Source: a virus
Virus record (IMG/VR): IMGVR_UViG_3300043772_002854
Coordinates: 1-34,472 of that record
Direction: 5' to 3' (one strand)
DNA: 34,472 nucleotides
The notes under the pieces: generated by a model
Told to the model about the DNA's origin: nothing
The model's input: only the letters and a program-made list of their open reading frames with translations
The model's database searches: none
Translations under genes and position numbers: made by a program
Shown here: positions 16,401 through 31,393 of the stretch, piece by piece
How the letters are laid out: every line of letters starts with the position of its first letter
How positions within the stretch are numbered: position 1 is the first letter of the stretch

Positions 16401-18618
16401 CAGTAGCATGTCCGTGTTTGTCAAATTTTTGATTATATTCTTTATTACCACCAAATGCTTTTGGGGAATCAAAATAACCGATGTAACTACCAACATCGTT
16501 TAAACCTTCTGACTTGTTTACAATCTCTTGTGTGTATTTAAGTAAACCTCTTTTAAAAGGGTTAACAGTTTGGTTACTATTACTGCCAGCTATAGTTCTT
16601 GGTGTCCAAGAATAGTTTTCCGTTGTAAAACCTTCATCGATGTTTTCACCAAAAGTTCCTTGATATTTTGTGTCGTATCCTGCATTTAATTCAAGTCCAA
16701 GACCCAATGGGCCATCCAAATCTTGGAATCCTAAAAGATCTGATTGTGATTTTGAATTTAAAGCTCCAGCTGTTTCTGTTTTACCAAAAAAACCTTCAAC
16801 GGCCGGACTTGTTGTATAACCTTCTTGTGGGACAGGTCCACCTTTTTCTGTTTCTGATGGGAAAAAATAATTTCCTTGGTTATATTTTGCGTAATTATTT
16901 TCTAAGGTAGGTCCGTATTTGTTAACATTAACCGTGTCAATAATTAAATTTCTGGTATGTTTACCCGTTTGGTCTAATAAATTACTACTAATATCAACTT
17001 CTTTGTAATTTACCCTATTTTCAGTAATAGCTCTACCTACTTGAATTGATTTCTCGTACTCTAATAAATTAAAGTCACCCGCGTCTAATATAGAATTAGG
17101 GTTATTAAATCCTGTTAATTTAGCTAAAAATTCTGCCGCTTTTCCAATGGCTGTTTTACGTGAAGTAATAGAATAATTTTTAATAATTAAATCTTGTCCT
17201 GTTAACAAACCAATCGGGCTTGTATTAATTACGCCAATTGTGTTATCAGTAAAGTTTAATTTAATTCTATTTAAAACTTCTACACCCCTTCTTTTTCTAG
17301 CTATTGTATCTAATTCCGAAATGTTTGTACCATCGGGTTTGTAATTTATACCTGAACCTATAGTGCTAAAAGGGATTACACCAACACCTAAAGTTCTACT
17401 AAATAGTTGGTCTCTAAAATCTCCTTGAATACCCGGATTATAAGATACAAATCCTGTACGGTCATTTAATAACACATCACCTGCAGTTCCGTAAGAAATT
17501 ATCTGTGTCGGTCCGTATTTATTATTTGCCTTTGTTAATAAGTCTCTGTCTCTAATTTCCCTAGTTGTTATAACTTGTCCACCAGGTTTAACCCAAGAGT
17601 TAATATTACCAGCAAAACTTAATTTTAAAGTTTGTGGAACCCCATATGGTGTATTATAATCTCCCGACCATTGTTGATAAACTGCAGCAAATTCAACAGG
17701 ATACCAATTTAACAAGTCTTCTTCTGTAGGATTTAAGGCTAGATTATCTGGTCTAGGTTGTGTAAAATTGTTTATCGTACTAGATATCTCTGATGCTTCC
17801 TGTACAGAAGGTAAATCAAGATTAGCAACATTTGAGTTAAACAAAGAAGTAGCGTCTTGTCCTAAACCTGCCTGTTGTGGTGTGGTTTGTCCTAAAACAT
17901 TGGCAACTTGTGGATTTATATCTTGTAAATTTTTATTAACGTTTAACTGTCTAGGATTGGTTAAATTATTATAAACCGAAGGTGTATTTGCCACAGTTTG
18001 TAATCCAGGTACATCTATATTAGATGTATTTGAATTAAATGTTGCGTCATTACCTTGTCCAGCATCTTCAGGGGTTGTTTGGCCTAAAACATTAGCAACT
18101 TGTGGATTTATATCTTGTAAATTTTTATTAACGTTTAACTGTCTAGGATTGGTTAAATTATTATAAACCGAAGGTGTATTTGCCACAGTTTGTAATCCCG
18201 GAACATCTATGTTTGATGGGTTTTGGTTAATTTGTGTTGAAGCGTCTGTCCCTTGTCCTGCTTGTATTGGTGTTGTTTGTCCAATATTGGCCTGAACCTG
18301 TGGGTTAATATTTTGTAAATTACTACCAACATTTACCTGTCTAGGATTGGTTAAATTATTGAAAACTGAAGGTGTATTTGCAACTGTAGTTAAATTGGGT
18401 ACATCTATAACGTTAAAAGTACTTTGGCTAACATCATACTCTGTTCCTCTATCAGCCCAAGGGTTACTTAAAACACTACTAATAACTGGATTTGGTGTCC
18501 CTAAATTATGTGTAAGAAGATAATCTCTAAAATTGGTATCGGTTATCGGTCCTAAAATACCACTATCAAACTTATCTATATTGTAATTGAAAGGATTTAT
18601 TTGTGGAATGTTGGGCAT
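13480..18618 (-). CDS. Large baseplate/tail protein with N-terminal tandem repeats and OmpA-like domain (1712 aa)
   Basis: Residues ~69-300 hold three near-identical repeats of about 64-66 aa plus a degenerate fourth (core VANTPSVYNNLTNPRQ). A long beta-rich body follows, with YYCRSWSSKRKYASFENLIR as one distinctive block. Around residues 1085-1160 there is an OmpA-like segment (TIQLYGYCSG, NYNLKLSHDRILSVYNWMI), a fold that binds peptidoglycan. Residues ~1380-1450 (FEPVQWDLNPEG, VDMGFKFIGGSSLGGPIKQL, AVSFNFFANTGIY) resemble a block common in phage baseplate proteins. It follows the tape measure gene after a 119-nt gap with its own ATATTTATAA element, and leads into the gp53-like gene. I infer a baseplate component that contacts the cell envelope. 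Confidence 0.75.
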   Translation of the reverse strand: MPNIPQINPFNYNIDKFDSGILGPITDTNFRDYLLTHNLGTPNPVISSVLSNPWADRGTEYDVSQSTFNVIDVPNLTTVANTPSVFNNLTNPRQVNVGSNLQNINPQVQANIGQTTPIQAGQGTDASTQINQNPSNIDVPGLQTVANTPSVYNNLTNPRQLNVNKNLQDINPQVANVLGQTTPEDAGQGNDATFNSNTSNIDVPGLQTVANTPSVYNNLTNPRQLNVNKNLQDINPQVANVLGQTTPQQAGLGQDATSLFNSNVANLDLPSVQEASEISSTINNFTQPRPDNLALNPTEEDLLNWYPVEFAAVYQQWSGDYNTPYGVPQTLKLSFAGNINSWVKPGGQVITTREIRDRDLLTKANNKYGPTQIISYGTAGDVLLNDRTGFVSYNPGIQGDFRDQLFSRTLGVGVIPFSTIGSGINYKPDGTNISELDTIARKRRGVEVLNRIKLNFTDNTIGVINTSPIGLLTGQDLIIKNYSITSRKTAIGKAAEFLAKLTGFNNPNSILDAGDFNLLEYEKSIQVGRAITENRVNYKEVDISSNLLDQTGKHTRNLIIDTVNVNKYGPTLENNYAKYNQGNYFFPSETEKGGPVPQEGYTTSPAVEGFFGKTETAGALNSKSQSDLLGFQDLDGPLGLGLELNAGYDTKYQGTFGENIDEGFTTENYSWTPRTIAGSNSNQTVNPFKRGLLKYTQEIVNKSEGLNDVGSYIGYFDSPKAFGGNKEYNQKFDKHGHATGQKEITTPLGGTIKLPGNLPSKGNTTKDSTGEYYCRSWSSKRKYASFENLIRGEKNWWLTTKPADVLGSDVPSNYSDLMTLNEVGMPKIAWEKDGVRELQITTDYESQSKGKSAVDALKNLAGFKPKVIPYMFSIENLAWVDAPQSAYLPLCEKGPNGGRIMWFPPYNIDFSESTSVNWDPTTMVGRGEPIYTYNNTERSGSLSFSIVVDHPSVLNKLRKDYAENIFDDVYHSFFAGCGNTDAYRDFIPPVRKDSTIEIPNTGVITPEVVKPKEPNDPPYTSFKVYFDNAFSDSKCPRNKQTGQYEECKGVQYINTTSQGRTLSFTYEENDLVCNGNSRPGLNKLVENKLAETCQFLVGKSGLLINPQSPSQPIFNQKYEEQEDGKNYTIQLYGYCSGAANKNYNLKLSHDRILSVYNWMIQYMESIENGDPVKFGGSDKTYPAETTLRGGFDDFIKSGQKGLRWEFYSLGDSASDPNSTNEEWAKEDTTGQDPCTSNQNSPDSLASKQARFVEVRLIKNPLNSTRISEQINNENQIVAQEKTKEEQAKKEAAQSIADSVAKSYIGECDYFQALKKSDSFIYNTLGEKLDNFHPAFHAITPEGFNSRLTFLQQCTRQGPQLIDINSPQNMIFGRPPICVLKIGDFYHTKIVIDSVNFSFEPVQWDLNPEGIGVQPMVVKVDMGFKFIGGSSLGGPIKQLQNAVSFNFFANTGIYNTARAVDNYLAQREGALQKKVVYGGYITPGQENALYDVIKQSSVMTDKKTDTVTPQPKAVDVPSTNAQTSPAVVSATTQDQKTDVKKSAVANKPATTVVGNKLENVRFECSQNFTSGNWTIGSFNKSLSPISANKTVYDQNATPKGVVGFGFYYKDYVTKSVAINNANQNYSNLLLGSRLFVQFLEGGVVNFIRTYGYSNQSENIKGAKIIRSGTYYNFGQYDKKIEPDGKVPLTIEINGVKTSNKSLILLLNQITANM
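17700..18414 (-). repeat. Tandem coding repeats of 192-198 bp in the 1712-aa gene
   Basis: Two copies (near 17890-18020 and 18082-18212) are almost identical at the DNA level with a 192-bp period. A third, more diverged copy lies 198 bp further upstream, and a partial fourth lies downstream. All periods are multiples of three, so the reading frame is kept. Confidence 0.85.
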
Positions 18619-18737: not shown

Positions 18738-21566
18738 TTATCTTGGTTTTCCACCGTTTCTATCACTACTCTTTGAGTATTCGATTAATTCTTTTAATTT
18801 TGAAACGAATATAGGGTCTTTTATCCAGTCGGTACCTGTTTTTCCTCCGGCTTCTCCTTTTAAAACAATTGAACCGTCTACCGTTAAATTTTCTTCAAAT
18901 TTAATTGTTGGTGATGCTCCTATTAAAGAAAACCACATGGATAAATCTTTTAAAGCATCTAATTTATTTTGGTCTACAGAATTGATTGCGTTTACGGCCT
19001 TTTCTATACCTTCCCCACCACCACTTGCAGCTAACGCTGTCGCAGTTTCTGTTAACATTGAAGTAACTCCACCTAACATTATTAAACCAGGTAAAGCTAA
19101 AAGTGATGCCGCTCCCATTGCAATTAAAGAAAGTGTTAATACACCTATTCCAGCTGCCATAGCCAAAAACCCTAATCCAGCCTGAAATAAACCTGAACCG
19201 TTTTGACCAATTACAGCAAACATTTTTGTGAAAGAATCTATAATTAATGAAACACCCATAGAGACCAAATATATAGCCGCCCCAAAAGCAACCATTGCAA
19301 CCGATAAGGCTAGGATAACTGCAACACCAATCCAACCACCTGCCGTAGCCGCAGACCCTAATGCCTCCAAACCAACCGCTAATCCCACTAAACCAAGTCC
19401 TGCTGCCTCACCAAAAAAAGCAACCGCCATCAACCCTACGGAACCAACAGTCATTAACGCAAAAGCAACAGAGGCTAAAATTAAATTACCAATACCCTTA
19501 GTAACACCCGGCATTCCCATACCCGCTGGACCTAAACCTAAAGCCATTGCTTTTAAGTTAGGTATTAACTGTATAAGACTTACTTTACCTAAAAATAATA
19601 ACGAAGGTATTGCCGCTAACATTGCTGTAAAACCAATGGCTGCCGGTACTAATAACATAGTACCTTTAGTCACACCAGGTAAAGTACCCATAGAAGATAA
19701 TCCAGTCGCCATACTAGTCAAACCAGCACCTGAACCTCCAGCGGCATTATTTACGGTACCACCTATTTTTGAAGTTATGGAACCAAATAAACTTTTAAGT
19801 CCACCACCAGCACTAATCAAAATACCTTTACCAGCTGCTAAACCAAATGCTAAACCGGCTATCACTTGTTGACCAACCCAATACGCGGCAAAACCAATAG
19901 CGGCCCCGATTAATAATTCCTTCCAATTTCCTTGTAAAAAATTCCATACATTCATAAAAACACTTTTAATTTGTTCCATGATTTGTGGAAAATTATTACC
20001 TATATATGTCGCCCATCTTTTAATTGTTTCAGCAAATTTTGTACCCCAATCACTTAATTTTGTAAAAACATCATTATCTGTAAAATATTTTTCTATTGAC
20101 ATAAAAAGTGGATAAACAGCGACTTGTAATTGATTTAAAAAATTTGTCCATCTTTCTGAAATACCTGTTGCTTGTTCCGCAGCCTCTTTCGCACTTTTCT
20201 TTTCATTTAAAGCTTTTAATAACTCATTTTTACTAAGTTGTGACAATTCTTTCATTACAGGTTTTGCGTTTTTACCCATATCTATTTGAATTTGTGCTTT
20301 ACCGTCTACCATTTGACTCATCACAGCGATAGCATCTTGTTCTTCGGGTGAAAGACCTTTACCACCTAACATTCCTTTAAACATGTTGATTTTAGCTCCC
20401 GTTTTTGCCTGTTCAACTAAGTTTTCCATAGATTGTCCAGTTGCCTCAGCAACAACACGTAATCTATCTATTTCCATAGCATTAACTTGAAACTCTCCTG
20501 TTTGACTATTAAAAGTAGCTGATTCAGCAGCCGCTTTTGCCATATCTTCGGCAAATTTTTCAGGATTATTACGAGCTTTATACATTAATTGAAACGGGTC
20601 TCCTAAACTAGCCATCGCACCACCCATTACCTGTAATTGAGCCGCCATTTCAATAGCACCTTCAGGTGAGAAAGCTTTTTCAGATGCACTTGCAATACCA
20701 TTCATGTCTATTTTATATTTCTCACTTAACTGAGCCATTTTTTGTAGACCTTTGATTCCGTTTTTAAAATTTAATTTATTTAACAGACCAATATTTTCTT
20801 GAAATTTTTTAATTACTTTACCTGCATTTAATCCCATGGCTGTTGAATCCGAATACATAGAGTATATCATATTAGCCGAATCTTCAGCCCCAAGGCCAAA
20901 TTGTTCCATTTGAGCCGTTAAACCTGCCATACCCTGCATACCAAGACCAGTTGCTTTACCAATCATGGCCATATTTTCTAATGCCGATTGGGTTAAAATA
21001 ACTGAACGACCCAACTCATCAGAATAAGCTTGTTGTGCCTCAAGAGCATCGGTAACACCAACACCATATCTGGCCATTTGTACACCAGCTTGTTGAATGT
21101 TACTTTGCATCATAAACATATTATTAGAACTTAAACCAATTTGAGCAGCAACATCTTTTGTTTTTTGACTAAATTCTAAATAACCTGTTAAAGCCTGACC
21201 TAAGTAAGTAACAAGACCACTAAGACCCATTCTAACAACACCACCAAGGGAAGCCATTTCTTTATTAATAGCCTTTATTTGGTCACGTTCTTTTTCAAGT
21301 TCCTGTACATTTTGTCTTAAAATTTTAGCTCTTTCTCTAGCCTCATCAGTACCTTCGTTTTCTAGTTTATTAATTTCTTTATTAAGGTCTTTTATCCTTG
21401 AAGAAACTTTTTGCATTTCACGATAGTTGGCAAGAATAACCCCTGTATATTTACCGGCACTTGCTAAACTTTTTCCAGTATCCCTTTGAGCGTTACGAAT
21501 TTGTTCTTGTAATTCTAAATACTCTTTTTCGTCTTTTATATTTCTATTAATATTATTGTCAGCCAT
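18738..21566 (-). CDS. Tail tape measure protein (942 aa)
   Basis: Residues ~40-110 form a coiled coil (SSRIKDLNKEINKLENEG and onward). A long helical region follows with Met/Gln/Ala-rich stretches (MQGMAGLTAQMEQFGLGAED). From about residue 555 to 870 there are multiple hydrophobic segments rich in Gly/Ala/Leu (LLIGAAIGFAAYWVGQ, LLVPAAIGFTAMLAAI, ILALSVAMVAFGAAIYLVSM) that could insert in the host membrane at DNA entry. This layout is typical of tape measure proteins, and T4 gp29 (590 aa) is the functional counterpart. It is downstream of the tail assembly chaperone and the 423-aa gene, as expected for the chaperone-tape measure order. It is 12 nt from the upstream gene, so the two are probably co-transcribed. 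Confidence 0.85.
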   Translation of the reverse strand: MADNNINRNIKDEKEYLELQEQIRNAQRDTGKSLASAGKYTGVILANYREMQKVSSRIKDLNKEINKLENEGTDEARERAKILRQNVQELEKERDQIKAINKEMASLGGVVRMGLSGLVTYLGQALTGYLEFSQKTKDVAAQIGLSSNNMFMMQSNIQQAGVQMARYGVGVTDALEAQQAYSDELGRSVILTQSALENMAMIGKATGLGMQGMAGLTAQMEQFGLGAEDSANMIYSMYSDSTAMGLNAGKVIKKFQENIGLLNKLNFKNGIKGLQKMAQLSEKYKIDMNGIASASEKAFSPEGAIEMAAQLQVMGGAMASLGDPFQLMYKARNNPEKFAEDMAKAAAESATFNSQTGEFQVNAMEIDRLRVVAEATGQSMENLVEQAKTGAKINMFKGMLGGKGLSPEEQDAIAVMSQMVDGKAQIQIDMGKNAKPVMKELSQLSKNELLKALNEKKSAKEAAEQATGISERWTNFLNQLQVAVYPLFMSIEKYFTDNDVFTKLSDWGTKFAETIKRWATYIGNNFPQIMEQIKSVFMNVWNFLQGNWKELLIGAAIGFAAYWVGQQVIAGLAFGLAAGKGILISAGGGLKSLFGSITSKIGGTVNNAAGGSGAGLTSMATGLSSMGTLPGVTKGTMLLVPAAIGFTAMLAAIPSLLFLGKVSLIQLIPNLKAMALGLGPAGMGMPGVTKGIGNLILASVAFALMTVGSVGLMAVAFFGEAAGLGLVGLAVGLEALGSAATAGGWIGVAVILALSVAMVAFGAAIYLVSMGVSLIIDSFTKMFAVIGQNGSGLFQAGLGFLAMAAGIGVLTLSLIAMGAASLLALPGLIMLGGVTSMLTETATALAASGGGEGIEKAVNAINSVDQNKLDALKDLSMWFSLIGASPTIKFEENLTVDGSIVLKGEAGGKTGTDWIKDPIFVSKLKELIEYSKSSDRNGGKPR

Positions 21567-21578
21567 TAATTAAACATT

Positions 21579-22847
21579 TTATAAAACTATTTGTAATTCA
21601 GCTTTAACTGGTTTACCAAAAGTATCATTATCCATAGGTTTCTTAGAAACTTCAACATTTATTTTATCTTGTAATTTAAAAGATCCTGTCGGTATTTTAC
21701 AAACAACAGCCTTATTATTTTTAAGACCTATAACAATTGTATTATTAGAACTAAAATTTTGACTTTTTCTAACTGTAGCTTTGTCTTTATATTGATTACC
21801 GTTGAATTGGTTTTCAACCTCTTTTACGGCCATAGGGTCTGCAGAGGTATCTGTTATTTTAAGAATAACCTTACTAACTTCTACAGGATCATTTGTTAAA
21901 TTTTTTAAATTACCGTCCCATTTAGTTTGACCTTGTTGTGATTGAGCCACTTTTTTTGTGTACTCATCCATTTCTAAACCCGCTCTTGTTCTTGCTTTAG
22001 GTCCTAAAACAATTGATTGTATATAAATTTTTCCATTTAAATTTTTGGTTTTAGTTGGGTCAACATTTTCTTCTTCTTCCTCTTCTTTAATTAATATAGT
22101 ATTTTTAGCTATTTGATTAATATAAGATTCTACAGTATTTTTAGGTTTTTCTTTTGGGAATAAATTTGGTGCAGCTAGTCTTCTATTATTATAAGTAAAT
22201 TTAAAAAATCCAGCTAAGTCATTGAATAATTCTTCTTTACCCTTTCCACCTTTATTACTTTCACCTACCTCTTTACCATCTTCACCTTCACCCTCCTCAC
22301 TCTCTTTATCTTCTTCTTTTTCCTTCTTAATCACTTCAATAACATTTTTAGCATTACTAAATTCTATCGTATAAAATTTACCTTTTCCGTCATCAGATCC
22401 AGTAACCAAGGCCATAACTTTATTACTTTTACCAATTATGGGTTCTTTAGTACCGGGTAGTTGGGTAATCAATTCTTCCTCTTTAGTGAAAATCATTTTA
22501 AATAATACCCCTTCTTTTGTTTTAAGTTCTAAGGTTAAGGGTTTTTTTTCTATTACACGAGCTAAAGTATAAACTGGTCTTGGTTTTGGTAAAGAAAGGC
22601 CTTCTATGTCACTATCAACAACCTGTAACAAAAAGTTAAACTTAAAAGGTTCAATACTTAATTGGTCTATTGTCTTAATAGAATCTAATCCAGGTATTTT
22701 ATATACACCTATTGATTGAAGTCTATCTTTAGCTTTTTCTAAACTACCTCGAGCTTTAGCAATATCAAGAGCTGCTTGGTCACCAGAAACAGGTGCTTCT
22801 TTTAATAAAGACCTAAATTTATTCTTGTTTAATAAAATTACTGACAT
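21579..22847 (-). CDS. Virion-like protein with N-terminal tag and shared LFNDLAGFFKFTYNNR motif (423 aa)
   Basis: The start at 22847 (MSVILLNKNKFRSLLKEAPV) is chosen because the ATATTTATAA element lies 11 nt upstream of it; an in-frame start at 22901 would swallow that element. The N-terminus contains L-L-K-E-A, a plausible prohead-protease-type site. The middle is a Lys/Glu-rich linker (DKESEEGEGEDGKEVGESNK) followed by LFNDLAGFFKFTYNNR, a motif repeated in the 850-aa protein at 28092-30644. The C-terminal third is beta-rich. No known family is recognised. It lies between the tail assembly chaperone and the tape measure, so a tail or injected protein is likely. The function is unknown. Confidence 0.75.
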   Translation of the reverse strand: MSVILLNKNKFRSLLKEAPVSGDQAALDIAKARGSLEKAKDRLQSIGVYKIPGLDSIKTIDQLSIEPFKFNFLLQVVDSDIEGLSLPKPRPVYTLARVIEKKPLTLELKTKEGVLFKMIFTKEEELITQLPGTKEPIIGKSNKVMALVTGSDDGKGKFYTIEFSNAKNVIEVIKKEKEEDKESEEGEGEDGKEVGESNKGGKGKEELFNDLAGFFKFTYNNRRLAAPNLFPKEKPKNTVESYINQIAKNTILIKEEEEEENVDPTKTKNLNGKIYIQSIVLGPKARTRAGLEMDEYTKKVAQSQQGQTKWDGNLKNLTNDPVEVSKVILKITDTSADPMAVKEVENQFNGNQYKDKATVRKSQNFSSNNTIVIGLKNNKAVVCKIPTGSFKLQDKINVEVSKKPMDNDTFGKPVKAELQIVL

Positions 22848-22858
22848 TGATGTTTTAT

Positions 22859-22868
22859 TTATAAATAT
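22859..22868 (-). promoter_or_regulatory. ATATTTATAA element (candidate late promoter)
   Basis: An exact minus-strand copy of the 10-mer, 11 nt upstream of the 423-aa gene and directly after a terminator hairpin. It probably starts the tape measure transcript. Confidence 0.6.
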
Positions 22869-22878
22869 CAAGTAAATA

Positions 22879-22903
22879 AAAAATGGGGCTAGTAGCCCCA
22901 TTA
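22879..22903 (-). terminator. Rho-independent terminator after the chaperone extension
   Basis: On the minus strand, ATGGGGCT-AC-TAGCCCCAT forms a perfect stem followed by TTTTTTATTT. It begins just 3 nt past the stop codon of the frameshifted extension (22906), so the chaperone transcript is built to include that extension. Confidence 0.85.
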
Positions 22904-22905
22904 AA

Positions 22906-23094
22906 TTATCTTCTTTTTGATTTTGCCTTATCGTATTCTTTTTTTTGTTCTTCTAGTTCTCTTTGCCATAAATCAAGATAAATACGTCTTTCCCATACAG
23001 GCATATTTTGAACGGATTCATAAGAAAATCTCATATGTTTTACCATATAATAAATTTCTCTTTTAATACTCAAATTATATTCTGACGTTAGGCC
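22906..23094 (-). CDS. Tail assembly chaperone C-terminal extension, probably translated by frameshift
   Basis: This 62-residue open frame is +1 relative to the gp26-like gene and has no good start of its own: a TTG lies at 23073, and ATGs at 23046 and 23034 have weak ribosome sites. Read through from the T7 run at 23095-23101 it continues GLTSEYNLSIKREIYYMVKH, then SYESVQNMPVWERRIYLDLW and a Lys/Glu-rich tail. The NMPVWERRIYL block matches the hallmark of tail chaperone T-domains (short helix, then M/L-P-x-x-x-R-x-x-x-[IL]). Translation by +1 or -2 slippage would give a fusion of about 312 aa. Independent translation as a 46-aa protein from 23046 is the alternative. Confidence 0.75.
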   Translation of the reverse strand, partial: GLTSEYNLSIKREIYYMVKHMRFSYESVQNMPVWERRIYLDLWQRELEEQKKEYDKAKSKRR

Positions 23095-23845
23095 AAAAAA
23101 AGTTGAGTCCGAGGGTAACTGGAGCTTGAAATGTACCTGTCGGTCCCTCCACTTCGGCCGACATATCTATACCTGGTTCAATTGAGTCAGAATATTCTCT
23201 GAATTTAAGCGAATCATAAGCTGGCATTACATTAACAAATTGTTGGATGTAGTTAATATCTCTATTACCATCAACCTCTTTAATCTGAGCTTGTAGTCTA
23301 TAGGTTAAAGCGTTTGAAATTTGAGATTTTGTTGCTTTTTCATATTTTTCAGTTCTACTAACAATAGATTTTTCATCACCAACAGTTAAAAGGCTAAATT
23401 TAATTTTCTTTTTACTTCTTGGTAATAAAAAAGAAAATTCTCTTTTTTCATCTGGTTCAACACCTTCTGGTAGTTCTTTTGTTTTTAAAGTAGATAAATC
23501 TATTTCAGTTTCAAATTCAACACCACTTGTTGGGTCAGTTAATTTAACAGGATACATTTCACCGTAACCTGTAGCACGTAACCAAATCATGATTGCATTT
23601 CTATCACCAACTAATAATTCTTCAAAAGGTACTGGAGCCTCTTTAACTTTTCTTTCCAATAAAACATCAAGAACTTTCCCACTTTTAATTAAATTGGGTG
23701 ATGTTAAAATATTTTCATCCATTGCGGTCATATATTCCACTTTTACAGCACCTTGTTGTCCAGGGTATAAAAGACCTTTAGATGGCAAAGGAATAACATC
23801 GAATGGGGCTTGAAATTGAATTTCTTGTGTTTGTTGTTTTGACAT
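23075..23845 (-). CDS. 26: gp26/T4-baseplate family protein, tail assembly chaperone (G-like)
   Basis: The 256-aa protein has the pattern of the T4_baseplate family (T4 gp26): FDVIPLPSKGLLYPG near the N-terminus, EYMTAMDENILTSPNLIKSG, LVGDRNAIMIWLRATGYGEM, and a helical KYEKATKSQISNALTYRLQA. In T4 gp26 acts in hub assembly. Here the gene sits between the tail tube side and the tape measure, the place of tail assembly chaperones in other tailed phages. The last codons (AAC TTT TTT TGG) contain seven T in a row, followed in the +1 frame by an open extension. I infer it is the short product of a frameshift pair. No clear ATATTTATAA copy precedes it; CATAAATAG at 23920-23928 is only a weak variant. 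Confidence 0.85.
   Translation of the reverse strand: MSKQQTQEIQFQAPFDVIPLPSKGLLYPGQQGAVKVEYMTAMDENILTSPNLIKSGKVLDVLLERKVKEAPVPFEELLVGDRNAIMIWLRATGYGEMYPVKLTDPTSGVEFETEIDLSTLKTKELPEGVEPDEKREFSFLLPRSKKKIKFSLLTVGDEKSIVSRTEKYEKATKSQISNALTYRLQAQIKEVDGNRDINYIQQFVNVMPAYDSLKFREYSDSIEPGIDMSAEVEGPTGTFQAPVTLGLNFFWPNVRI
23095..23101 (-). other. T7 slippery run, candidate programmed frameshift site
   Basis: On the minus strand the seven T cover the in-frame Phe-Phe codons and the first base of Trp, eight codons before the end of the gp26-like frame (stop included). Phe-tRNA re-pairs perfectly with TTT after a +1 slip. A -2 slip of the A-site tRNA also keeps TTT. Both enter the extension frame. Confidence 0.65.
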
Positions 23846-23990: not shown

Positions 23991-24974
23991 ATGAAAATGA
24001 CACAAGATAAATTAACTCGATTAACTGAAGTTCTTTCAGTACCGACTCACTCTCGTAATGAAAAACTTATGATTGAGTATTTACAAAAAGTTTTAACCCA
24101 AAAAGGGTATGAACACTATACTGATTCACACGGTAACATTTATGTTACAAAAGGTGTTAGTAAAAACTTCCCTTGTTTTGTTGCACATACTGATACAGTT
24201 CACCCTGTTAATATGAACATGATTGTTGTACAAACAGAAGGTGAAGATGGTGTTATCTTAACAGGTATGGACAAAGTAACTAAAAAGGCATCGGGTATTG
24301 GTGGTGATGATAAATGTGGTGTTTTCTTAGCACTTGAAATGTTAGATACATTACCAAATGTTAAAGCAGCATTCTTTGTATCAGAAGAAATTGGTTGTAA
24401 AGGTAGTATGTACGCTGACCCTAAATTCTTTGAAAATATTGGTTACGTTATTCAATACGATTCTCCAGGTGGGGCATCCATGAGCTTAACTTTAATGGGT
24501 CGTTACTTATTCAATCAAAAATCACAATTTGCTGATAAGGTAACAGGGTTAATTAAAGAACACGGTATTGTTGATTGGGCATACCACCCATACACCGATG
24601 TTTGGCAAATTATGGAAAAATTTAATATCGCTTGTTTAAACTTGGCAGCTGGTTACTACCGTTACCATACTGATAATGAATATGTAATTGTTGATGATGT
24701 TCAGAATGGTTTTGAACTTGGTTTAAAACTTGTTGAAGAATTAGGTGAGAATAAATATGAAAATCCAAAAGAAGATAAAAATTATAATAATTTAAGTACT
24801 TATTGGGGTGGTAGTTCTAAAACTAAAACAAAAGAAACAAAAACACTTTTGATTGAAGATGATGAAGATGAGAACGATATTTTTAATAGTGGTGAGTATG
24901 TTTATTCAGACCGTAAAAATAATAATTATTACAGTCGGAGTTGGAATGATTGGGACGAAGATTATGATTGGTAA
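23991..24974 (+). CDS. M20/M28-like zinc metallopeptidase (327 aa)
   Basis: All expected di-zinc residues of an M20/M28-type aminopeptidase fold are visible: VAHTD (H66, D68), GGDDKCG (D106), SEE (E132, E133), QYDSPGG (D157) and YRYHTDNE (H226). PepT-like enzymes are about 400 aa and carry an inserted dimerisation lid; here the catalytic domain runs nearly uninterrupted to about residue 255, so the lid is missing or reduced. The C-terminal 70 residues are low-complexity, acidic, then Tyr/Asn/Trp-rich (NNNYYSRSWNDWDEDYDW). It is an isolated plus-strand gene between late minus-strand genes, with a host-type promoter and a shared terminator. It looks like acquired accessory cargo. The substrate is unknown; a small peptide is likely. 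Confidence 0.85.
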   Translation: MKMTQDKLTRLTEVLSVPTHSRNEKLMIEYLQKVLTQKGYEHYTDSHGNIYVTKGVSKNFPCFVAHTDTVHPVNMNMIVVQTEGEDGVILTGMDKVTKKASGIGGDDKCGVFLALEMLDTLPNVKAAFFVSEEIGCKGSMYADPKFFENIGYVIQYDSPGGASMSLTLMGRYLFNQKSQFADKVTGLIKEHGIVDWAYHPYTDVWQIMEKFNIACLNLAAGYYRYHTDNEYVIVDDVQNGFELGLKLVEELGENKYENPKEDKNYNNLSTYWGGSSKTKTKETKTLLIEDDEDENDIFNSGEYVYSDRKNNNYYSRSWNDWDEDYDW

Positions 24975-25005: not shown

Positions 25006-25485
25006 TTAATCAGGTTCTTTTAACCTAACATCGTATTCAACACCACCTTTGTCAAAGTAAGAAATTTCAACATTATCAAGGGCAGCGGGATAATCAGAAC
25101 CAAAGACAAAATCAGACATATCTTTTGGTGTACCATAAACGTTTTCACTATCATAAGAACCTAAAGCCAAACCAACACTTTTAGCTAATGTTGATACTTC
25201 TTTCCATCTACCATAACCACGTTCGTCTAATAAAACTAAATAAAATTTACAAACATTAACAAAGGTTTCAAAAGAACTTGGGTCTTCCATATTAAAAACA
25301 AATTCTTCTCTAAGATAGGCATCACCATATTCCCAACCTGTTTTCATAACAAAAAGATTTGACTTTGCTGGTCTATTCATCGGGTTTTTGGCAACCTCAA
25401 ATGGTAAGTCTACACCACTAAATTGATTAGATAAATCATCCAACCAATCAGATTCTCTTAGTATTCTTTTTATTAACGGTTTCAT
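25006..25485 (-). CDS. Tagged hypothetical protein, MKPLIKRILRES N-terminus (159 aa)
   Basis: The N-terminus MKPLIKRILRESDWLDDL belongs to the same tag type as the genes at 25448 and 25968. L-R-E-S fits an [LI]-x-E cleavage pattern. After the tag the protein looks globular alpha/beta (LFVMKTGWEYGDAYLREEFV, KFYLVLLDERGYGRWKEVST). No family is recognised. The start overlaps the upstream gene's 3' end by 38 nt, so the two are translationally coupled. I infer a capsid-internal or otherwise virion-targeted protein. Confidence 0.75.
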   Translation of the reverse strand: MKPLIKRILRESDWLDDLSNQFSGVDLPFEVAKNPMNRPAKSNLFVMKTGWEYGDAYLREEFVFNMEDPSSFETFVNVCKFYLVLLDERGYGRWKEVSTLAKSVGLALGSYDSENVYGTPKDMSDFVFGSDYPAALDNVEISYFDKGGVEYDVRLKEPD

Positions 25486-25936
25486 TTAACTGACTTTCTA
25501 ATTCTTCTATACGTGATTTTAAATCTTTTATTTCTGATTCAGATTCTGATCTAGCATCGTCTAGACCTCTTCCGTAACCTTCTTCATCACCTTCTTCTTT
25601 TGCTTCTCTAACAGCGTCACGATGGTCACTATAATAAACATAATCATCACAACAACCTTCACAGTCACAAGATTCTCGACCACTATCTACACCTCTTTCA
25701 TAAAGACTGTTAACCTCGTCATAAATAAAACTTCCGATTTCTTGTAACTTATCAATATCTTTAATACCTGCATCAACCAACATTTGATATAGTTCTAGAC
25801 CCTCAAAATTATAGTCATATTCAGCACTATAAAACTTTTTTTGAATTTGTTTTTCAACATCCTTGGTATCAAAACCACGAACCCATTCAAACTCGTCGTT
25901 TTCTTCTTTTAATATTTTACGGATAAGATTTTTCAT
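25448..25936 (-). CDS. Tagged coiled-coil protein with Cys cluster, MKNLIRKILKEE N-terminus (162 aa)
   Basis: Starts MKNLIRKILKEENDEF, a basic amphipathic helix ending in L-K-E. Residues ~80-100 hold ESCDCEGCCDDYVYYSD, four cysteines in a C-x-C-x2-C-C pattern that could bind metal. The last ~50 residues are a charged coiled coil (SEIKDLKSRIEELESQL). No family is recognised. The ATATTTATAA element lies only 3 nt upstream of the ATG, implying a near-leaderless mRNA if it is the -10 element. The next gene (159 aa, same tag) overlaps it by 38 nt. Confidence 0.75.
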   Translation of the reverse strand: MKNLIRKILKEENDEFEWVRGFDTKDVEKQIQKKFYSAEYDYNFEGLELYQMLVDAGIKDIDKLQEIGSFIYDEVNSLYERGVDSGRESCDCEGCCDDYVYYSDHRDAVREAKEEGDEEGYGRGLDDARSESESEIKDLKSRIEELESQLNETVNKKNTKRI

Positions 25937-25967: not shown

Positions 25968-27461
25968 TTAATCAATAAACGTTCCAGTAGGACTTTGATG
26001 TTTAATTTTAGTATTAGGGTCTAAATCGAATTTTTGACGTAAAAAATCTAAAAATTCTTTACCATATAAAATTTTGTTCATATAAGGTTCATTGTCAAAA
26101 AGACCTATCTTCATCCATTCCGGTGATACTTTTGCCGTAATATCTTTTGGTAAATTAGGGTTTTTAAACCATTTAATTCGGGTTATATTTTCAATTGGGT
26201 TATTTCCACCAAATGATTTATTCAAAATTTGACTTGTTAGTTTTAATTCAGCGTCGTTGACACGTAAACTTAACACCTTACTATTTTTTTTATCTTTATA
26301 TAAATAACATTTTTGTTTTTCAAATTCAGGGTAAAAATTTTCTGTATTTTGATATTTCTTTAGTGTAATTTTCATTGCCTTAGTATAACAAGGTATTTCC
26401 TCTGCTTTTGTAATTGTATTAACAAATTCTTTTGCTTTCTCCAAGTAAAAAGTTTTTTCTTCAGGTTTTAAAATTCTAATGTTTTCACGTTGAGAATCGG
26501 CATATAAATTTTTTTGTAAACAATAATAACCACCCACGTCAGGACCATTTATTTCTGATAAAATAGAATCAACAGTTTTTTTAAATTCTGGTCGACCATT
26601 TCCATACATGACATTATCAGAAATTAAAATAAAATCATCGGGATTATTGTCATTAATATAAGGTTTAATGTTTAAAACAGCTAATGGGTTGTTAATGTTC
26701 TTATCCGTTTTTTTAATTAAATAAGAAATTAAAGAACCTTCTTTAACATCATGAATTAAATATTTTGCATTTTCACCCGTTTCTTTACGGTCATTAATTT
26801 CATCTTGAAGAACACGTATTTTACCATTTAATTTAATTTCAGGACTGTTCCACGTTAAATTACCCTTACCTTGCTCAAATTCTTTATACCAATTTGGGTT
26901 ATCTTTGGTCATATCCTTTAATCTTTGTTTAAGAGCATCCAACTCCGTTTGTATTTTTTCAATACGTTTTGACCCAGCATGACCCAAGGTCATACAATTG
27001 GTCCAATTTCTATCGGTATCAGAACCTGCAATATCATAAGGATGACGAGAGATAACAACCATTAAACTTTCAGCATCAGAGGTTAAAGCTTTTCTCGATT
27101 CGTCAGAAACAAATTTTTTCATTAAATCTTCTGCTCTTAATCTTGTTAAAGCCTTACCAATAGTTGTTGTGTTTTTGGAGTCACCAAACTTTGCAACACC
27201 TTTAATATAATCCAAAACTTGGTAACCATTTTGAGTTAGAAAATCTGTAATTTCTTTTTCAACGTTAGAGATGGGCCCAGATTTTTCTTCTTTACCTAAA
27301 GGAATATAAATACGATAGTAATTTCTATCATGTTCATACTTATCACCTAACGATTTAAAAATATCATTGTATCTTTCACGGTTAAAGGATTTAACATACT
27401 TTCTAAACTGTGAAGGTTTTAAAGCCTCTTGTAATAATATTTTACGAATAATATTTTTCAT
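25968..27461 (-). CDS. Large tagged virion-like protein, MKNIIRKILLQE N-terminus (497 aa)
   Basis: The N-terminus MKNIIRKILLQEALKPSQF carries the shared tag with L-Q-E-A. A distinctive conserved-looking core follows: VISRHPYDIAGSDTDRNWTN, then CMTLG, and later YLIHDVKEGSLISYLIKKTD with NPLAVLNIKPY. Similar R-x-W-x-x-C-M-x-L and D-I/V-x-x-G-[ST]-L-x-x-Y-L blocks occur in uncharacterised phage proteins, but I know no function. Helical linker ~170-230; the C-terminal 150 residues are Lys/Asn-rich. It has its own ATATTTATAA element 4 nt upstream and lies next to the tail tube gene. I infer a protein packaged in the head or delivered with DNA. Enzymatic activity is possible but no catalytic set is identified. 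Confidence 0.75.
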   Translation of the reverse strand: MKNIIRKILLQEALKPSQFRKYVKSFNRERYNDIFKSLGDKYEHDRNYYRIYIPLGKEEKSGPISNVEKEITDFLTQNGYQVLDYIKGVAKFGDSKNTTTIGKALTRLRAEDLMKKFVSDESRKALTSDAESLMVVISRHPYDIAGSDTDRNWTNCMTLGHAGSKRIEKIQTELDALKQRLKDMTKDNPNWYKEFEQGKGNLTWNSPEIKLNGKIRVLQDEINDRKETGENAKYLIHDVKEGSLISYLIKKTDKNINNPLAVLNIKPYINDNNPDDFILISDNVMYGNGRPEFKKTVDSILSEINGPDVGGYYCLQKNLYADSQRENIRILKPEEKTFYLEKAKEFVNTITKAEEIPCYTKAMKITLKKYQNTENFYPEFEKQKCYLYKDKKNSKVLSLRVNDAELKLTSQILNKSFGGNNPIENITRIKWFKNPNLPKDITAKVSPEWMKIGLFDNEPYMNKILYGKEFLDFLRQKFDLDPNTKIKHQSPTGTFID

Positions 27462-27539: not shown

Positions 27540-28028
27540 TTAAAAAACATGGATAGCCCGATCAAAGCGCAGGGTCCCAGTAATCTCAGCGATATCAGAA
27601 GATGAATAATCTAATGAACCAAAGTCAACGTTTGTTAACATTGTTCCTTGAAGAATCCATTTTTCAATTACAACACCTGTTGGGTCAAGTAATTCAAGTT
27701 CAATATCTTTTTTATAACCTGCTGCATAACCTTGACGACCTGTAACAGATTCAGAGTGAAGACGAACCCACTCCATTAAAGCTTGTGCCGCAGAAGGACC
27801 GATTGGGTCACGGAATGTAACGTCAATAGTATCCCAAGTAAAACGACCAATTACCCACGTAGAAGTATTTAAGAATTGAATCTCAGTTTCTTCTTGAGAA
27901 ATTTTTGGTCTTGATGATGATTTCACAAACCATTCTTGAATTCCTAATGGTGAAGGGAATCTAAGGATAAATCTATTTTGTTTTTTTGGTTCGTAAGGAA
28001 TCGGCATCCTCATTAATAAATCTGCCAT
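27540..28028 (-). CDS. 19: Tail tube protein, T4 gp19 family (162 aa)
   Basis: Length matches T4 gp19 (163 aa). The features of the tube fold are present: KQNRFILRFPSPLGIQEWFV at the N-terminus, then TSTWVIGRFTWDTIDVTFRD, ALMEWVRLHSESVTGRQGYA, and LELLDPTGVVIEKWILQGTM ending in a beta-rich TGTLRFDRAI. It forms the inner tube of the contractile tail. It has its own ATATTTATAA element and its own terminator, consistent with a need for high expression of this multi-copy protein. The sheath gene is not in this window. Confidence 0.93.
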   Translation of the reverse strand: MADLLMRMPIPYEPKKQNRFILRFPSPLGIQEWFVKSSSRPKISQEETEIQFLNTSTWVIGRFTWDTIDVTFRDPIGPSAAQALMEWVRLHSESVTGRQGYAAGYKKDIELELLDPTGVVIEKWILQGTMLTNVDFGSLDYSSSDIAEITGTLRFDRAIHVF

Positions 28029-28091: not shown

Positions 28092-30644
28092 TTAAATCTT
28101 ATTCATTAAAGTTAAAATACGTTTAACCTCTTCTTTTAAAAATTTATTTTCAGGTTTTTGGATTGATTCTTGTTGGGGTTCAACTTCTTTTTTCTCACTA
28201 CCCTTTCTTTTAATTTCACCAGTTTTTTGTTCTCCTTTACCAGAAGAAAGTTTACCTTGTTTTTTTAATTTAGCCATATATTGGAACATATTCATAAGTT
28301 CGGTAATAAAAGCAATCATATTATTTTTAAGGTCACTTTTAGCTTTTGCTTTCTTGCCTTTTCTTTCAGTTAAATAAGATTCACCCATTGAAACTTTATT
28401 GATGTTGCCACCACCTAAAGTACCCATTTTACTAACCATACCACCAGCATCTTTAAAGGTCATACCTCTAAAATTACCTTTGTATACAATCTCAATTAAA
28501 TCATTAATAAAACTACCCATCGCTTCAACATTTTGAGGATTACCTGAATTTACATTAAATGTTTTGGTAAAATCTTTACCCATGATTGGGTTTGATTTAA
28601 GTTTTTCTACAAACTTATCAAGTACATTATCACCCGTATTACCCATTTTTTTAACTTTGTTTCTGATGATTTCTACACGAGTCATGAAACCTTCAAAAAA
28701 TTTAAGTTTGTTGGCGTCAATACCTGATTTTTGTTTTAAAATTTTTATTACTTCTGGGTCTTTTATAAATTTACCTTCAGAAATTAAATTGTTGTTTGAC
28801 ATTTCGTTTATTAATTTACCTTTGTTAATCATTGATTCAGAAAGTTGGGTACATCTTACAGCGTAAGTGCCACCGTCTTCTCTTTTAACTTTAATTTGAC
28901 CTTTTTCTATAGTACTATCTTCTGTACTATTTGCAATAACCTCAACGGTTTTACCAGCCTTTGTTTTTACTTTTTGACCTTTTGTAAATTTACTACAAGG
29001 GTCACTTGATTCTTTTTTATCACCAAAAACATCAGGAGAGGCCATTTTTCTATTATTATATGTGAATTTAAAGAATCCTGCTAAATCGTTAAAAAGAGTT
29101 TCTTTATTAGCTTTTCCACCACCTTCTCCTCCACCAACAGGGTTCTGTTTTGGATTTGGTAATACTGGAGGTAAAGTAGACTCACCAGCTTCAATTGGTT
29201 GTAAAGATTGTAATAAATCATTAAGAGTTTTTGCTCTAGATTGTTTTTGACCTTTAACCCTCATCAATTTAACTAAAGCTCCGGCTGCTACCAAACCAAT
29301 ACCTATTGGTCCTAAAACAGCTCCAAAACCTTTAGCTATTGCGTAACCAGCACCTACTTTTACAGTAGTTTTCATTATTATTTTTGGTACCGCAGTAACA
29401 ATAGTTTTAACTATTAAACCTTTTAGTGTACCACCAGGAACAGTAACTAAAGTGTCACCCATTGATTTTCCTGTACCTGCCCATTTACCTTGAAATATTT
29501 CACCTAAATTATCACCATGTCCGTGTGGGTTTTTAACAATTTCAGTTAGAACGGCTTTTGCGTCATCTGGTGTGGCACACATACCTCCTTTAGCCGTAAT
29601 AGCGTCAATACCGGCTTGAACATTACCTCCACCTAATTTTTTTAAGGCCTCGATAAAATCTTCGGGTGAAGATTTTGGTGTTAAAAATTTCATTCCCTCT
29701 AGTGAATCTGGGCGGGCATTGTTAACCACATTCATTACTTGGGTTATACCTTGACCTGGTTTAACTGAGGCGAAAATATCTGATTTAGTTTCAACAGTTT
29801 TTTTAATGTATTCAATAGAAGGGTTTTGTGTTACGGTTTCAAATAAACTTTTAAACCATTCAGTATTCACCAACCAAGAAAAAGCCCCTAACGATGCCCC
29901 TACACCGGCTAATGTCATTGGTAATTTATTGGATTTTAATCCTTCTTTACCCATTCTTTTGGTATCATATTCTTTACCACCTTTTTTTGCTTGTAACTTA
30001 GCTCTAACATCGGCAGCCTCGTCTTCATTAATATCTCCTACTTCATCGGCTAACAATTCTTTACCATCTTCATCACCTACTTTTTCTTCTTCGGAATCCA
30101 TAACTGTATAAGCAGCTGCCAAATCAACATCTAAGAATTTTTGAACATACTCTGCCAAATCAGCAATTATAGAATTGGCAGCATCTGTTGGTAAATAACC
30201 TTCTTCTTTAGGGTTCTTTTTTGCTGCTTCAACGAGTGAATCGTAAACTGCAGCTATCTCCATTACAGTTTTTAAAAATTGTTCACCTTTTTCATTGTTA
30301 GGAAAATCAGGGTTTTCTTGTTTAATTGTATCATTAAGTTTTTTAATAACTTCATTACCCTTTTTATCCAAAATGGATTGAATTTTAGCTCCAGCCTCTT
30401 GGTCTATCTTACCTTTACCGAAAATTTTACCACCAGCTTTATAACGACCTAATTTAGATAAACCAAATTTTATCTTTTCCCAAAGGCCTTCTTGTAGTAC
30501 TTGATACTCTTGGTTAGATAATTGGTTCTCCACCAACATTCTATTACCTTTTAACATTAAATCAGCAGATTCCACTAATTCATTTATAGTGTTTTGGTAA
30601 TCTCGATTTAAAGCTCTTTCTATGTCTTGTTCTGTTAAAATCAT
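28092..30644 (-). CDS. Large virion/internal protein with terminal tags, membrane-like segments and the LFNDLAGFFKFTYNNR motif (850 aa)
   Basis: I chose the ATG at 30644 (MILTEQDIERALNRDYQN) because the longer start at 30734 would overlap both the clpP start and the late-type element. The N-terminus has L-V-E-S and L-Q-E-G sites. Two hydrophobic regions occur: GVGASLGAFSWLVNTEW, and a longer one with GYAIAKGFGAVLGPIGIGLV. A Gly-rich linker precedes LFNDLAGFFKFTYNNR, which is shared with the 423-aa protein. A small beta segment (KGQKVKTKAGKTVEVIANST) resembles an SH3/KOW-like unit. The protein ends LKEEVKRILTLMNKI, similar to the end of the 137-aa protein. Unknown function; the features suit a structural or ejected protein. 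Confidence 0.75.
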   Translation of the reverse strand: MILTEQDIERALNRDYQNTINELVESADLMLKGNRMLVENQLSNQEYQVLQEGLWEKIKFGLSKLGRYKAGGKIFGKGKIDQEAGAKIQSILDKKGNEVIKKLNDTIKQENPDFPNNEKGEQFLKTVMEIAAVYDSLVEAAKKNPKEEGYLPTDAANSIIADLAEYVQKFLDVDLAAAYTVMDSEEEKVGDEDGKELLADEVGDINEDEAADVRAKLQAKKGGKEYDTKRMGKEGLKSNKLPMTLAGVGASLGAFSWLVNTEWFKSLFETVTQNPSIEYIKKTVETKSDIFASVKPGQGITQVMNVVNNARPDSLEGMKFLTPKSSPEDFIEALKKLGGGNVQAGIDAITAKGGMCATPDDAKAVLTEIVKNPHGHGDNLGEIFQGKWAGTGKSMGDTLVTVPGGTLKGLIVKTIVTAVPKIIMKTTVKVGAGYAIAKGFGAVLGPIGIGLVAAGALVKLMRVKGQKQSRAKTLNDLLQSLQPIEAGESTLPPVLPNPKQNPVGGGEGGGKANKETLFNDLAGFFKFTYNNRKMASPDVFGDKKESSDPCSKFTKGQKVKTKAGKTVEVIANSTEDSTIEKGQIKVKREDGGTYAVRCTQLSESMINKGKLINEMSNNNLISEGKFIKDPEVIKILKQKSGIDANKLKFFEGFMTRVEIIRNKVKKMGNTGDNVLDKFVEKLKSNPIMGKDFTKTFNVNSGNPQNVEAMGSFINDLIEIVYKGNFRGMTFKDAGGMVSKMGTLGGGNINKVSMGESYLTERKGKKAKAKSDLKNNMIAFITELMNMFQYMAKLKKQGKLSSGKGEQKTGEIKRKGSEKKEVEPQQESIQKPENKFLKEEVKRILTLMNKI

Positions 30645-30655
30645 TTTAAAATTTT

Positions 30656-30687
30656 TTTGACAATTTATTTTATTATAAATATCATTG
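30656..30687 (+). promoter_or_regulatory. Bacteroidetes-type promoter for clpP
   Basis: TTTG at 30656-30659, a 20-nt spacer, then TATCATTG at 30680-30687 (one mismatch to TAnnTTTG). The ATG is 22 nt downstream. It overlaps the divergent ATATTTATAA element, so the two directions may compete. Confidence 0.55.
30673..30682 (-). promoter_or_regulatory. ATATTTATAA element (candidate late promoter)
   Basis: An exact minus-strand copy, 28 nt upstream of the 850-aa gene start. Read on the plus strand it contains TATAAATA (30674-30681), identical to the T4 late promoter core, facing clpP. Confidence 0.6.
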
Positions 30688-30709
30688 TAGAAACAAAATT
30701 CATATACAA

Positions 30710-31393
30710 ATGACAGAATTCGAAAAATTTGCAATCAAAGACCAAGGTATTGGGTCTAACACTTTACACAGTTACCAAAATTTTATGTCCCAAATACCAA
30801 ACGTACAAGGTAGTATGACACCTTATGTATTGGAAGAAAGAGAAATGAGAGCCACTCAAATTGACATCTTCTCACGTTTAATGATGGACCGTATCCTTTG
30901 GGTTGCTGGACCTGTTAACGACAGAATGTCAACCGTGGTACAAGCTCAATTACTTTTCTTGGACCAACAAGATTCTAAAAAAACAATTACAATGCACATT
31001 GATTCTCCTGGCGGTTCAGTTAAATCAGGTCTTAGTATGGTAGACGTAATGTCTTACATTAAAGCACCTATCGCAACTGTTAACACAGGTATGGCAGCAT
31101 CAATGGGTTCCGTATTGTTAGGAGCAGGAACCAAAGGTATGAGAAGTTCTTTAAGATTCTCAAAAACAATGTTACACCAATCAAGTGGTGGGGCAATGGG
31201 TAACATCCAAGACGCTCGTATAACAATGCAAGAATGGGAAAAAACCAACCAAATTCTTTTTGAATTACTTGGTGGTTATTGTGGCAAAACTGCTGAACAA
31301 GTAGCTAAAGACGCACAACGTGATTTATGGTTATCGGCTGATGAGGCATTAAAGTATGGTATTATTGATGAGATAATTAAACCTAAAAAATAA
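30710..31393 (+). CDS. clpP: ClpP-like serine protease (227 aa)
   Basis: A full-length ClpP, the proteolytic barrel subunit that works with Clp ATPases. The catalytic triad is intact: S131 in GMAASMGSVLL, H156 in TMLHQSSGG and D205 in QRDLWLSADEALKYGIID. The oxyanion-loop motif HIDSPGGSV and the ILWVAGPVNDRMSTVVQAQL head segment are also typical. Host ClpP is usually about 195-225 aa, so nothing is missing. No Clp ATPase is in the window, so it would need a host unfoldase or act alone. It is an isolated plus-strand gene with a host-type promoter and terminator. A role as prohead maturation protease is an alternative, since some tailed phages use ClpP-fold enzymes, but its similarity to cellular ClpP argues for modulation of host proteolysis. 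Confidence 0.9.
   Translation: MTEFEKFAIKDQGIGSNTLHSYQNFMSQIPNVQGSMTPYVLEEREMRATQIDIFSRLMMDRILWVAGPVNDRMSTVVQAQLLFLDQQDSKKTITMHIDSPGGSVKSGLSMVDVMSYIKAPIATVNTGMAASMGSVLLGAGTKGMRSSLRFSKTMLHQSSGGAMGNIQDARITMQEWEKTNQILFELLGGYCGKTAEQVAKDAQRDLWLSADEALKYGIIDEIIKPKK

What the first reader, a model, noticed from the sequence alone, without database searches (positions are those of the whole stretch)
22906..23845. Probable programmed ribosomal frameshift making a G/GT-type tail assembly chaperone in a T4-like phage
The gp26-like gene ends ...AAC TTT TTT TGG CCT AAC GTC AGA ATA TAA. Seven T in a row (23095-23101) span two Phe codons. In the +1 (or -2) frame the reading stays open for 62 further codons, giving GLTSEYNLSIKREIYYMVKH and then NMPVWERRIYLDLW with a charged tail. 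That block has the form of the T domain of tail assembly chaperones. The extension frame has no convincing start, and it ends 3 nt before a strong terminator. The gene lies between the tail tube side and the tape measure, the location of lambda G/GT. Known pairs use -1 (lambda), -2 (Mu) or +1 shifts. A slip at a pure T7 run in a T4_baseplate/gp26-family gene would link T4 gp26-type hub proteins to this chaperone class.
Basis: partly seen in the sequence, partly recalled or inferred. Interest (0 to 1): 0.88.

Follow-up and report, generated by a model that had tools for sequence, protein, structure and literature searches.

The report
Forward frameshift in phage tail chaperone
This phage gene almost certainly uses a deliberate ribosome slip, most likely one base forward at a run of Ts, to make a short and a long form of a tail-building helper protein; the two-form trick is known in T4-like phages, but in this large lineage the slip goes to the opposite frame from that of the T4-like cyanophages.

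Summary
The 256-aa gp26-like ORF ends AAC TTT TTT TGG CCT AAC, and the +1 frame stays open for 62 codons to a stop 3 nt before a terminator. That extension is homologous to the C-terminal (T) domain of T4-like gp51 (phrog_634 E=9e-8; profile-profile E=1.7e-8).

In 30 distinct close relatives TTT TTT TGG CCT AAC is invariant while synonymous sites elsewhere differ about 45%. The extension evolves as protein only in the +1 frame and lacks a conserved start codon. Across 79 broader relatives the T domain is in the +1/-2 frame in 75. In 79 of 79 cyanophage relatives it lies in -1, on a classic T_TTT_TTC heptamer.

So this is a tail assembly chaperone pair (TAC-N and TAC-NC, like lambda G/GT) made by frameshifting. 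That T4-like phages have such chaperones (T4 gp26/gp51), and that several groups frameshift, was published by Vladimirov et al. 2022, known here only through citing papers and my memory. What I did not find described is the direction: +1 by comparative evidence, with -2 not excluded for this genome, shared by a deep lineage, with two switches to -1 nested in it. Verdict: real; a new variant of a known kind. No protein evidence is available here.

The parts
23075..23845 (-). TAC-N gene (gp26-like), 256 aa, 0-frame product
   Evidence: PF12322 T4_baseplate 2.5e-9; phrog_150 baseplate hub 1.7e-10; AlphaFold2 model pLDDT 88.7 matching T4-like baseplate hub/assembly proteins in BFVD
23095..23101 (-). 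T7 slip site, read AAC TTT TTT TGG; a +1 slip takes Phe-tRNA from UUU to UUU, next codon GGC
   Evidence: T7 in 30/30 distinct close relatives; Phe codons at the site TTT 147/147 versus 518/652 elsewhere in 75 relatives
23087..23110 (-). nucleotide-conserved block GGACTCAAC-TTTTTTT-GGCCTAAC around the slip site
   Evidence: synonymous-difference O/E 0.07 in the last 10 codons versus about 1 over the rest of the gene
22906..23094 (-). T domain (gp51-like C-terminal extension) in the +1 frame, 62 codons plus stop
   Evidence: phrog_634 baseplate hub assembly catalyst 8.9e-8; pN/pS 0.40 against 0.95 and 1.50 in the other frames; hhalign to cyanophage/T4 gp51 C-termini Prob 95.4, E 1.7e-8
22906..23845 (-). 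predicted frameshift product TAC-NC, 312 aa by +1 (313 by -2), ...GLNFFGLTSEYN...
   Evidence: inferred, no protein evidence
22882..22902 (-). intrinsic terminator after the T domain (9-bp stem, then T-rich tail)
27540..28028 (-). tail tube protein, presumed partner of the T domain
   Evidence: phrog_4542 3.4e-31
18738..21566 (-). probable tape measure protein (942 aa), presumed client of TAC-N
   Evidence: position after the chaperone as in Immuto and LIS04; no family hit, so inferred

Best explanation
The gene encodes the tail assembly chaperone of a T4-related contractile-tailed phage. Most ribosomes read the 0 frame and make TAC-N (256 aa, gp26-like), which probably coats the tape measure protein. 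A minority slip one base forward when Phe-tRNA sits on the second UUU of AAC-UUU-UUU-UGG. It re-pairs with the overlapping UUU, translation resumes at GGC, and TAC-NC is made: TAC-N plus a 62-residue T domain that probably recruits tube subunits, as lambda GT does. Shown by comparison: gene identity, T-domain homology, conserved +1 frame, invariant slip site. Inferred: that the slip happens and how often, its +1 rather than -2 step, and the roles of the two products.
For: TTT TTT TGG CCT AAC is invariant in 30 distinct relatives while synonymous codons elsewhere differ 45% of the time; O/E 0.07 in the last 10 codons. The +1 frame is open for 63-68 codons in every close relative with no conserved ATG/GTG/TTG ahead of the domain. 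pN/pS is 0.40 in the +1 frame against 0.95 and 1.50 in the others. T domain in the +1/-2 frame in 75 of 79 wider relatives, in six diverged phages including Flavobacterium Immuto, Microcystis Mel-JY01, Bacillus SP-15, Listeria LIS04 and Streptococcus GXN1, and in 25 of 27 scored Thornevirus-type loci. Homology to T4-like gp51 T domains. For +1 over -2: TTC TTT CGT sites (GXN1, L229, L234, L240; TTC TTT CGC in L232) and AAC TTT CTA (LR756508) let Phe-tRNA re-pair UUU to UUC after +1 but not after -2.
Against: No proteomic or ribosome-profiling evidence. At this genome's own T7 site, +1 and -2 re-pair equally well. No clear stimulator was found: a hairpin overlapping the slip site pairs fully in 26 of 30 close relatives but in only 10 of 52 wider T7 sites. 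A few relatives (L241, L245, L248, L252) lack a good UUU-Y site and may slip elsewhere.
Confidence: 0.87

Rival explanations
1. Same gene pair and same fusion, but reached by a -2 slip (as in phage Mu), giving FFF-G at the junction.
For: In the T7 run Phe-tRNA re-pairs perfectly after -2 as well; the frame alone cannot tell the two apart.
Against: Sites TTC TTT CGT and AAC TTT CTA in the same lineage fit +1 re-pairing but not -2.
Confidence: 0.12
2. Transcriptional slippage: RNA polymerase drops one U (or adds two) in the T7 run, and a fraction of mRNAs encode the fusion.
For: Homopolymer of seven in an AT-rich genome; T7 conserved in the close clade.
Against: The frame relation persists where the run is broken: TTTCTTT in Immuto and L070, TTCTTTC in GXN1, AACTTTCTATTC in LR756508. 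Seven other T7 runs lie in coding sequences of this window.
Confidence: 0.04
3. The T domain is a separate small gene with its own start (TTG at codon 9 of the extension frame, or ATG at codon 18), perhaps translationally coupled.
For: A TTG and several ATG exist in the window frame; annotators call fragments as separate genes in Immuto, SP-15 and Mel-JY01.
Against: No start codon is conserved: the TTG at codon 9 is absent in the relatives, ATG18 is missing in L016, L026, L028 and L030-L042, and the conserved domain begins upstream of both. Independent starting would not explain invariant TTT TTT TGG or the fixed frame relation across variable spacing.
Confidence: 0.03
4. Sequencing or assembly error in a homopolymer, or a decaying in-frame fusion.
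For: Homopolymer runs are error-prone.
Against: The same frame break occurs in dozens of independent contigs and in isolated, sequenced phages; the extension is under purifying selection.
Confidence: 0.01

Closest known systems
Tail assembly chaperones of T4-like phages (T4 gp26 = TAC-N, gp51 = TAC-NC; cyanophage gp26/gp51), Vladimirov, Gautam and Davidson 2022
   Same: Same N-terminal family (PF12322/phrog_150) and homologous T domain (phrog_634); T4 gp51 is a TAC-N paralogue carrying the T domain in one ORF.
   Different: In T4 the two forms are separate, divergently oriented genes. In the cyanophages the T domain lies in the -1 frame on T_TTT_TTC, 79 of 79. Here it lies in +1 (or -2).
Phage lambda G/GT
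   Same: Short and frameshift-extended chaperone, minority long form (PMC5009743).
   Different: Lambda shifts -1; no sequence similarity was found or claimed; the TAC-N fold gave only a weak, non-significant match to the HK97 chaperone 2ob9 (E 1.7, prob 0.44).
Vandenendeviridae/Andersonviridae TAC locus (Pseudomonas phage Adele)
   Same: T-rich slip site at the end of TAC-N and open extension frame across genera (PMC12846349).
   Different: -1 shift at GTTTTT there.
Haloarchaeal myovirus HSTV-2 chaperone (very likely +1) and bacterial prfB (+1 at CUU-UGA)
   Same: +1 direction; the CTT TGG C site of Immuto and L070 resembles prfB's CUU U (HSTV-2 and prfB from PMC5009743 and PMC10274946).
   Different: prfB shifts at a stop codon with a Shine-Dalgarno stimulator (own knowledge for the latter); here the A-site codon is a sense codon (UGG, CGU, UAC) and no stimulator was found.

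Membership tests
Tail assembly chaperone pair (TAC-N/TAC-NC) of T4-like phages | TAC-N belongs to the gp26/T4_baseplate family | tested here: met
   PF12322 2.5e-9 above cut-off; phrog_150 1.7e-10; structural matches to T4-like baseplate hub/assembly proteins
Tail assembly chaperone pair (TAC-N/TAC-NC) of T4-like phages | Extension homologous to the gp51 T domain | tested here: met
   phrog_634 8.9e-8; hhalign Prob 95.4, E 1.7e-8
Tail assembly chaperone pair (TAC-N/TAC-NC) of T4-like phages | Located between tail tube and tape measure genes | tested here: met
   Tube 28028-27540, chaperone 23845-22906, 942-aa tape-measure-like ORF 21566-18738, with intervening genes; clean tube-TAC-tape order in LIS04
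Tail assembly chaperone pair (TAC-N/TAC-NC) of T4-like phages | Both short and long proteins are made; absent from mature virions | not testable with these tools
   needs proteomics
Programmed ribosomal frameshift, generic | Conserved slip site with synonymous suppression and conserved second frame | tested here: met
-1 frameshift class of T4-like chaperones (X_XXY_YYZ heptamer) | T domain in the -1 frame on a heptamer such as T_TTT_TTC | tested here: not met
   -1 frame ends almost at once (NFFLA*) in the window and close relatives; T domain is in +1
+1 frameshift by P-site re-pairing | All junctions of the class allow P-site tRNA re-pairing one base forward | tested here: inconclusive
   met for nearly all junctions (UUU-U, UUU-C, CUU-U); poor for L241/L245/L248/L252; -2 not excluded at T7 itself
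prfB-type +1 frameshift | Stop codon in the A site and Shine-Dalgarno-like stimulator 3-6 nt upstream | tested here: not met
   A-site codon is UGG; the only GGAG-like stretch is about 50 nt upstream
Lambda G/GT family | Homology to lambda or HK97 chaperones | tested here: inconclusive
   no sequence hit to a chaperone in PDB; fold hit to HK97 2ob9 has the highest probability of the list but E 1.7

The most novel reading that the evidence does not exclude
A large, deep lineage of T4-related phages (with members recorded on Flavobacterium, Microcystis, Bacillus, Listeria and Streptococcus, plus large metagenomic phages) makes its tail chaperone by a +1 P-site slip on UUU-U or UUU-C at a sense codon, without stop codon or Shine-Dalgarno stimulator: a natural class of bacterial +1 shift sites not described in what I could read. 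The frame used has changed between +1 and -1 at the same Phe-Phe motif at least twice within it (L093; L109/L122/L131).
Probability: 0.65. Interest if true: 0.6.

Novelty: new variant of a known kind. Interest (0 to 1): 0.47.

Why it matters
Tail chaperones set how tail tubes assemble on the tape measure, and the ratio of their short and long forms is fixed by recoding. In this protein family the slip-site motif (Phe-Phe near the end of TAC-N) is shared, while the frame used for the T domain differs: -1 in cyanophages, separate genes in T4, +1 in this lineage, with nested reversals. That makes it a natural experiment on how frameshift direction evolves, and gives dozens of variant sites for testing what a bacterial +1 slip at a sense codon needs. 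Practically, the T domain is missed or annotated as short unrelated ORFs in several sequenced phages (Immuto, SP-15, Mel-JY01, S-WAM2).

Tried and rejected
A downstream hairpin UUUGGC-CUAAC-GUCAGA looked conserved (alifold z about -8 to -13 against column shuffles), but it overlaps the slip site, lies in dual-coding sequence, and is complete in only 10 of 52 wider T7 sites: not taken as a general stimulator. An upstream GTGGAG stretch is nearly invariant in the close clade, but its distance varies in diverged phages, so a Shine-Dalgarno stimulator is not claimed. My first idea that CTT TGG sites exclude -2 was wrong: a Leu-tRNA can re-pair with UUC through a G-U pair. Rfam gave nothing relevant. 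The paper of Vladimirov et al. 2022 is not held, so whether it already mentions +1 cases could not be checked. The automatic site finder misplaced the site in L074, L091, L095, L096 and L102 (it chose a downstream codon pair); their sites can be read. One tool call was sent with a placeholder query by mistake and one on a wrong alignment type.

Full report
The observation. The minus-strand ORF 23845-23075 (256 aa) ends AAC TTT TTT TGG CCT AAC GTC AGA ATA TAA, with T7 at 23101-23095. Skipping one base opens a 62-codon extension whose stop is at 22908-22906; a 9-bp terminator stem begins 3 nt later at 22902. The window is a 34,472-base IMG/VR virus record. T7 alone is not rare here: eight such runs lie inside coding sequences, and some other genes have long +1 frames past their stops, mainly neighbouring genes. 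The case therefore rests on comparison.

What the two parts are. The 0-frame protein hits Pfam T4_baseplate PF12322 (2.5e-9) and phrog_150 (1.7e-10). The 62-residue extension hits phrog_634, baseplate hub assembly catalyst, that is gp51 (8.9e-8). A profile of such extensions aligns with the C-termini of cyanophage gp51 and T4 gp51 at Prob 95.4, E 1.7e-8. T4 gp51 itself is a full gp26-type domain plus this C-terminal domain: phrog_150 2.6e-84 and phrog_634 1.2e-23, consistent with gp26 and gp51 being the short and long forms of one chaperone. In T4 the two genes are separate and divergent. An AlphaFold2 model of the 256-aa protein (pLDDT 88.7) matches SP-15 and other T4-like baseplate hub/assembly proteins. 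Its only functionally relevant PDB match is the HK97 tail assembly chaperone 2ob9, at a non-significant E of 1.7.

Conservation of the shift. Forty-seven related viral contigs were found. In the 32 printed, TTTTTTTGGCCTAAC is retained with an open +1 frame; the -1 frame ends at once. In 30 distinct sequences the synonymous difference rate is about 0.45 per codon for diverged pairs, but observed/expected falls to 0.07 in the last ten codons, and TTT TTT TGG CCT AAC is invariant. Part of that suppression is expected from dual coding, but the Phe codons precede the extension. The extension has pN/pS 0.40, close to the 0.33 of the main domain; the two other frames give 0.95 and 1.50. No start codon is conserved ahead of the domain.

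How widespread. A profile search gave 80 loci (five of them repeats of close relatives). In 79 with a recognisable T domain it is in the +1/-2 frame in 75 and in -1/+2 in four. The site is TTT TTT followed by TGG, TAC, TAT, CGT or CGG, occasionally TTT CTT TGG or CTT TTT TGG; Phe codons at the site are TTT 147 of 147 against 518 of 652 elsewhere in the same genes. Related sequences are not independent, so no probability is attached. Six diverged phage genomes share the +1 relation: Immuto, Mel-JY01, LR756508, GXN1, LIS04 and SP-15. A search from the last three gave 25 of 27 scored loci in +1; several of the T-domain hits there are weak. By contrast 79 of 79 scored cyanophage relatives have the T domain in -1, on T_TTT_TTC in the examples printed.

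History. In a maximum-likelihood tree of the N-terminal domain (51 rows, quick method), cyanophages with T4 separate from the rest at 98% support. The +1 state fills the other side, with -1 nested in it for L093 (whose site has become GAT TTT TTT TTC, a classic -1 heptamer) and for L109/L122/L131 (TTC TTC TGG, no longer a good +1 site). The very long PA5oct branch is not placed reliably. The frame has thus changed within the family; which state is ancestral is not settled.

Direction and mechanism. The frame cannot separate +1 from -2. In this genome's T7, Phe-tRNA re-pairs fully either way. TTC TTT CGT or CGC (GXN1, L229, L232, L234, L240) and AAC TTT CTA (LR756508) fit +1 (UUU to UUC) and not -2, so one mechanism for the whole lineage is +1. 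Transcriptional slippage is unlikely because the frame relation persists where the T run is broken. No general RNA stimulator was found.

Prior knowledge. Lambda G/GT and the wide conservation of such frameshifts are reviewed in PMC5009743, which also names one haloarchaeal myovirus as very likely +1. PMC12846349 describes a -1 shift at GTTTTT in Vandenendeviridae chaperones and cites Vladimirov, Gautam and Davidson 2022 for -1 poly-T signals in T4-like TAC-N genes. PMC10274946 cites the same paper for T4-like phages that carry a short gene and a longer fusion instead. That paper is not held; from memory its abstract states that frameshifting is conserved in several T4-like groups and that T4 uses genes 26 and 51. 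The +1 class I did not find described in the papers I could search.

Verdict. A real frameshift-made tail chaperone, a new variant (direction) of a known kind.

Noticed in passing
window 21579-22901 and 28092-30734 (-): The 440-aa ORF after the chaperone and the 880-aa ORF upstream of the tail tube share a near-identical segment, LFNDLAGFFKFTYNNR(R/K)xAxPxxF.
   Followed up: no
window 25448-25936, 25006-25485, 25968-27461, 21579-22901 (-): Several proteins start with a similar basic/hydrophobic helix ending in (I/L)-L-x-E, such as MKNLIRKILKEE, MKPLIKRILRES and MKNIIRKILLQE; possibly head-targeting propeptides with a T4-like LxE protease site. A ClpP-like gene at 30710-31393 hits phage head maturation protease families (phrog_94, 7e-41).
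   Followed up: no
window 13480-18618 (-): A 1712-aa ORF in the tail/baseplate region carries an OmpA-like (peptidoglycan-binding) stretch at residues 1121-1163 (PF00691, 2.1e-6).
   Followed up: no
window 23991-24974 (+): An M42/M20-like peptidase gene sits on the opposite strand between the tail tube and chaperone genes.
   Followed up: no
L093 3196-3260; L109 2255, L122 3217, L131 2525: Relatives in which the T domain has moved to the -1 frame: L093 on T_TTT_TTC, and L109/L122/L131 with TTC TTC TGG, where the actual shift site is unclear.
   Followed up: partly
L048 2333-2443, L053 2255-2374, L050 2234-2470, L060 1501-1626: In Immuto, SP-15 and Mel-JY01 parts of the T domain are annotated as small hypothetical proteins with differing starts, and in S-WAM2 it is not annotated at all.
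   Followed up: yes
window 23087-23165 (-): The last 96 nt of the gene are richer in G+C (46%) than the rest (31%) and hold an almost invariant GTGGAG and an invariant upstream TTT in the close clade; cause unknown.
   Followed up: partly
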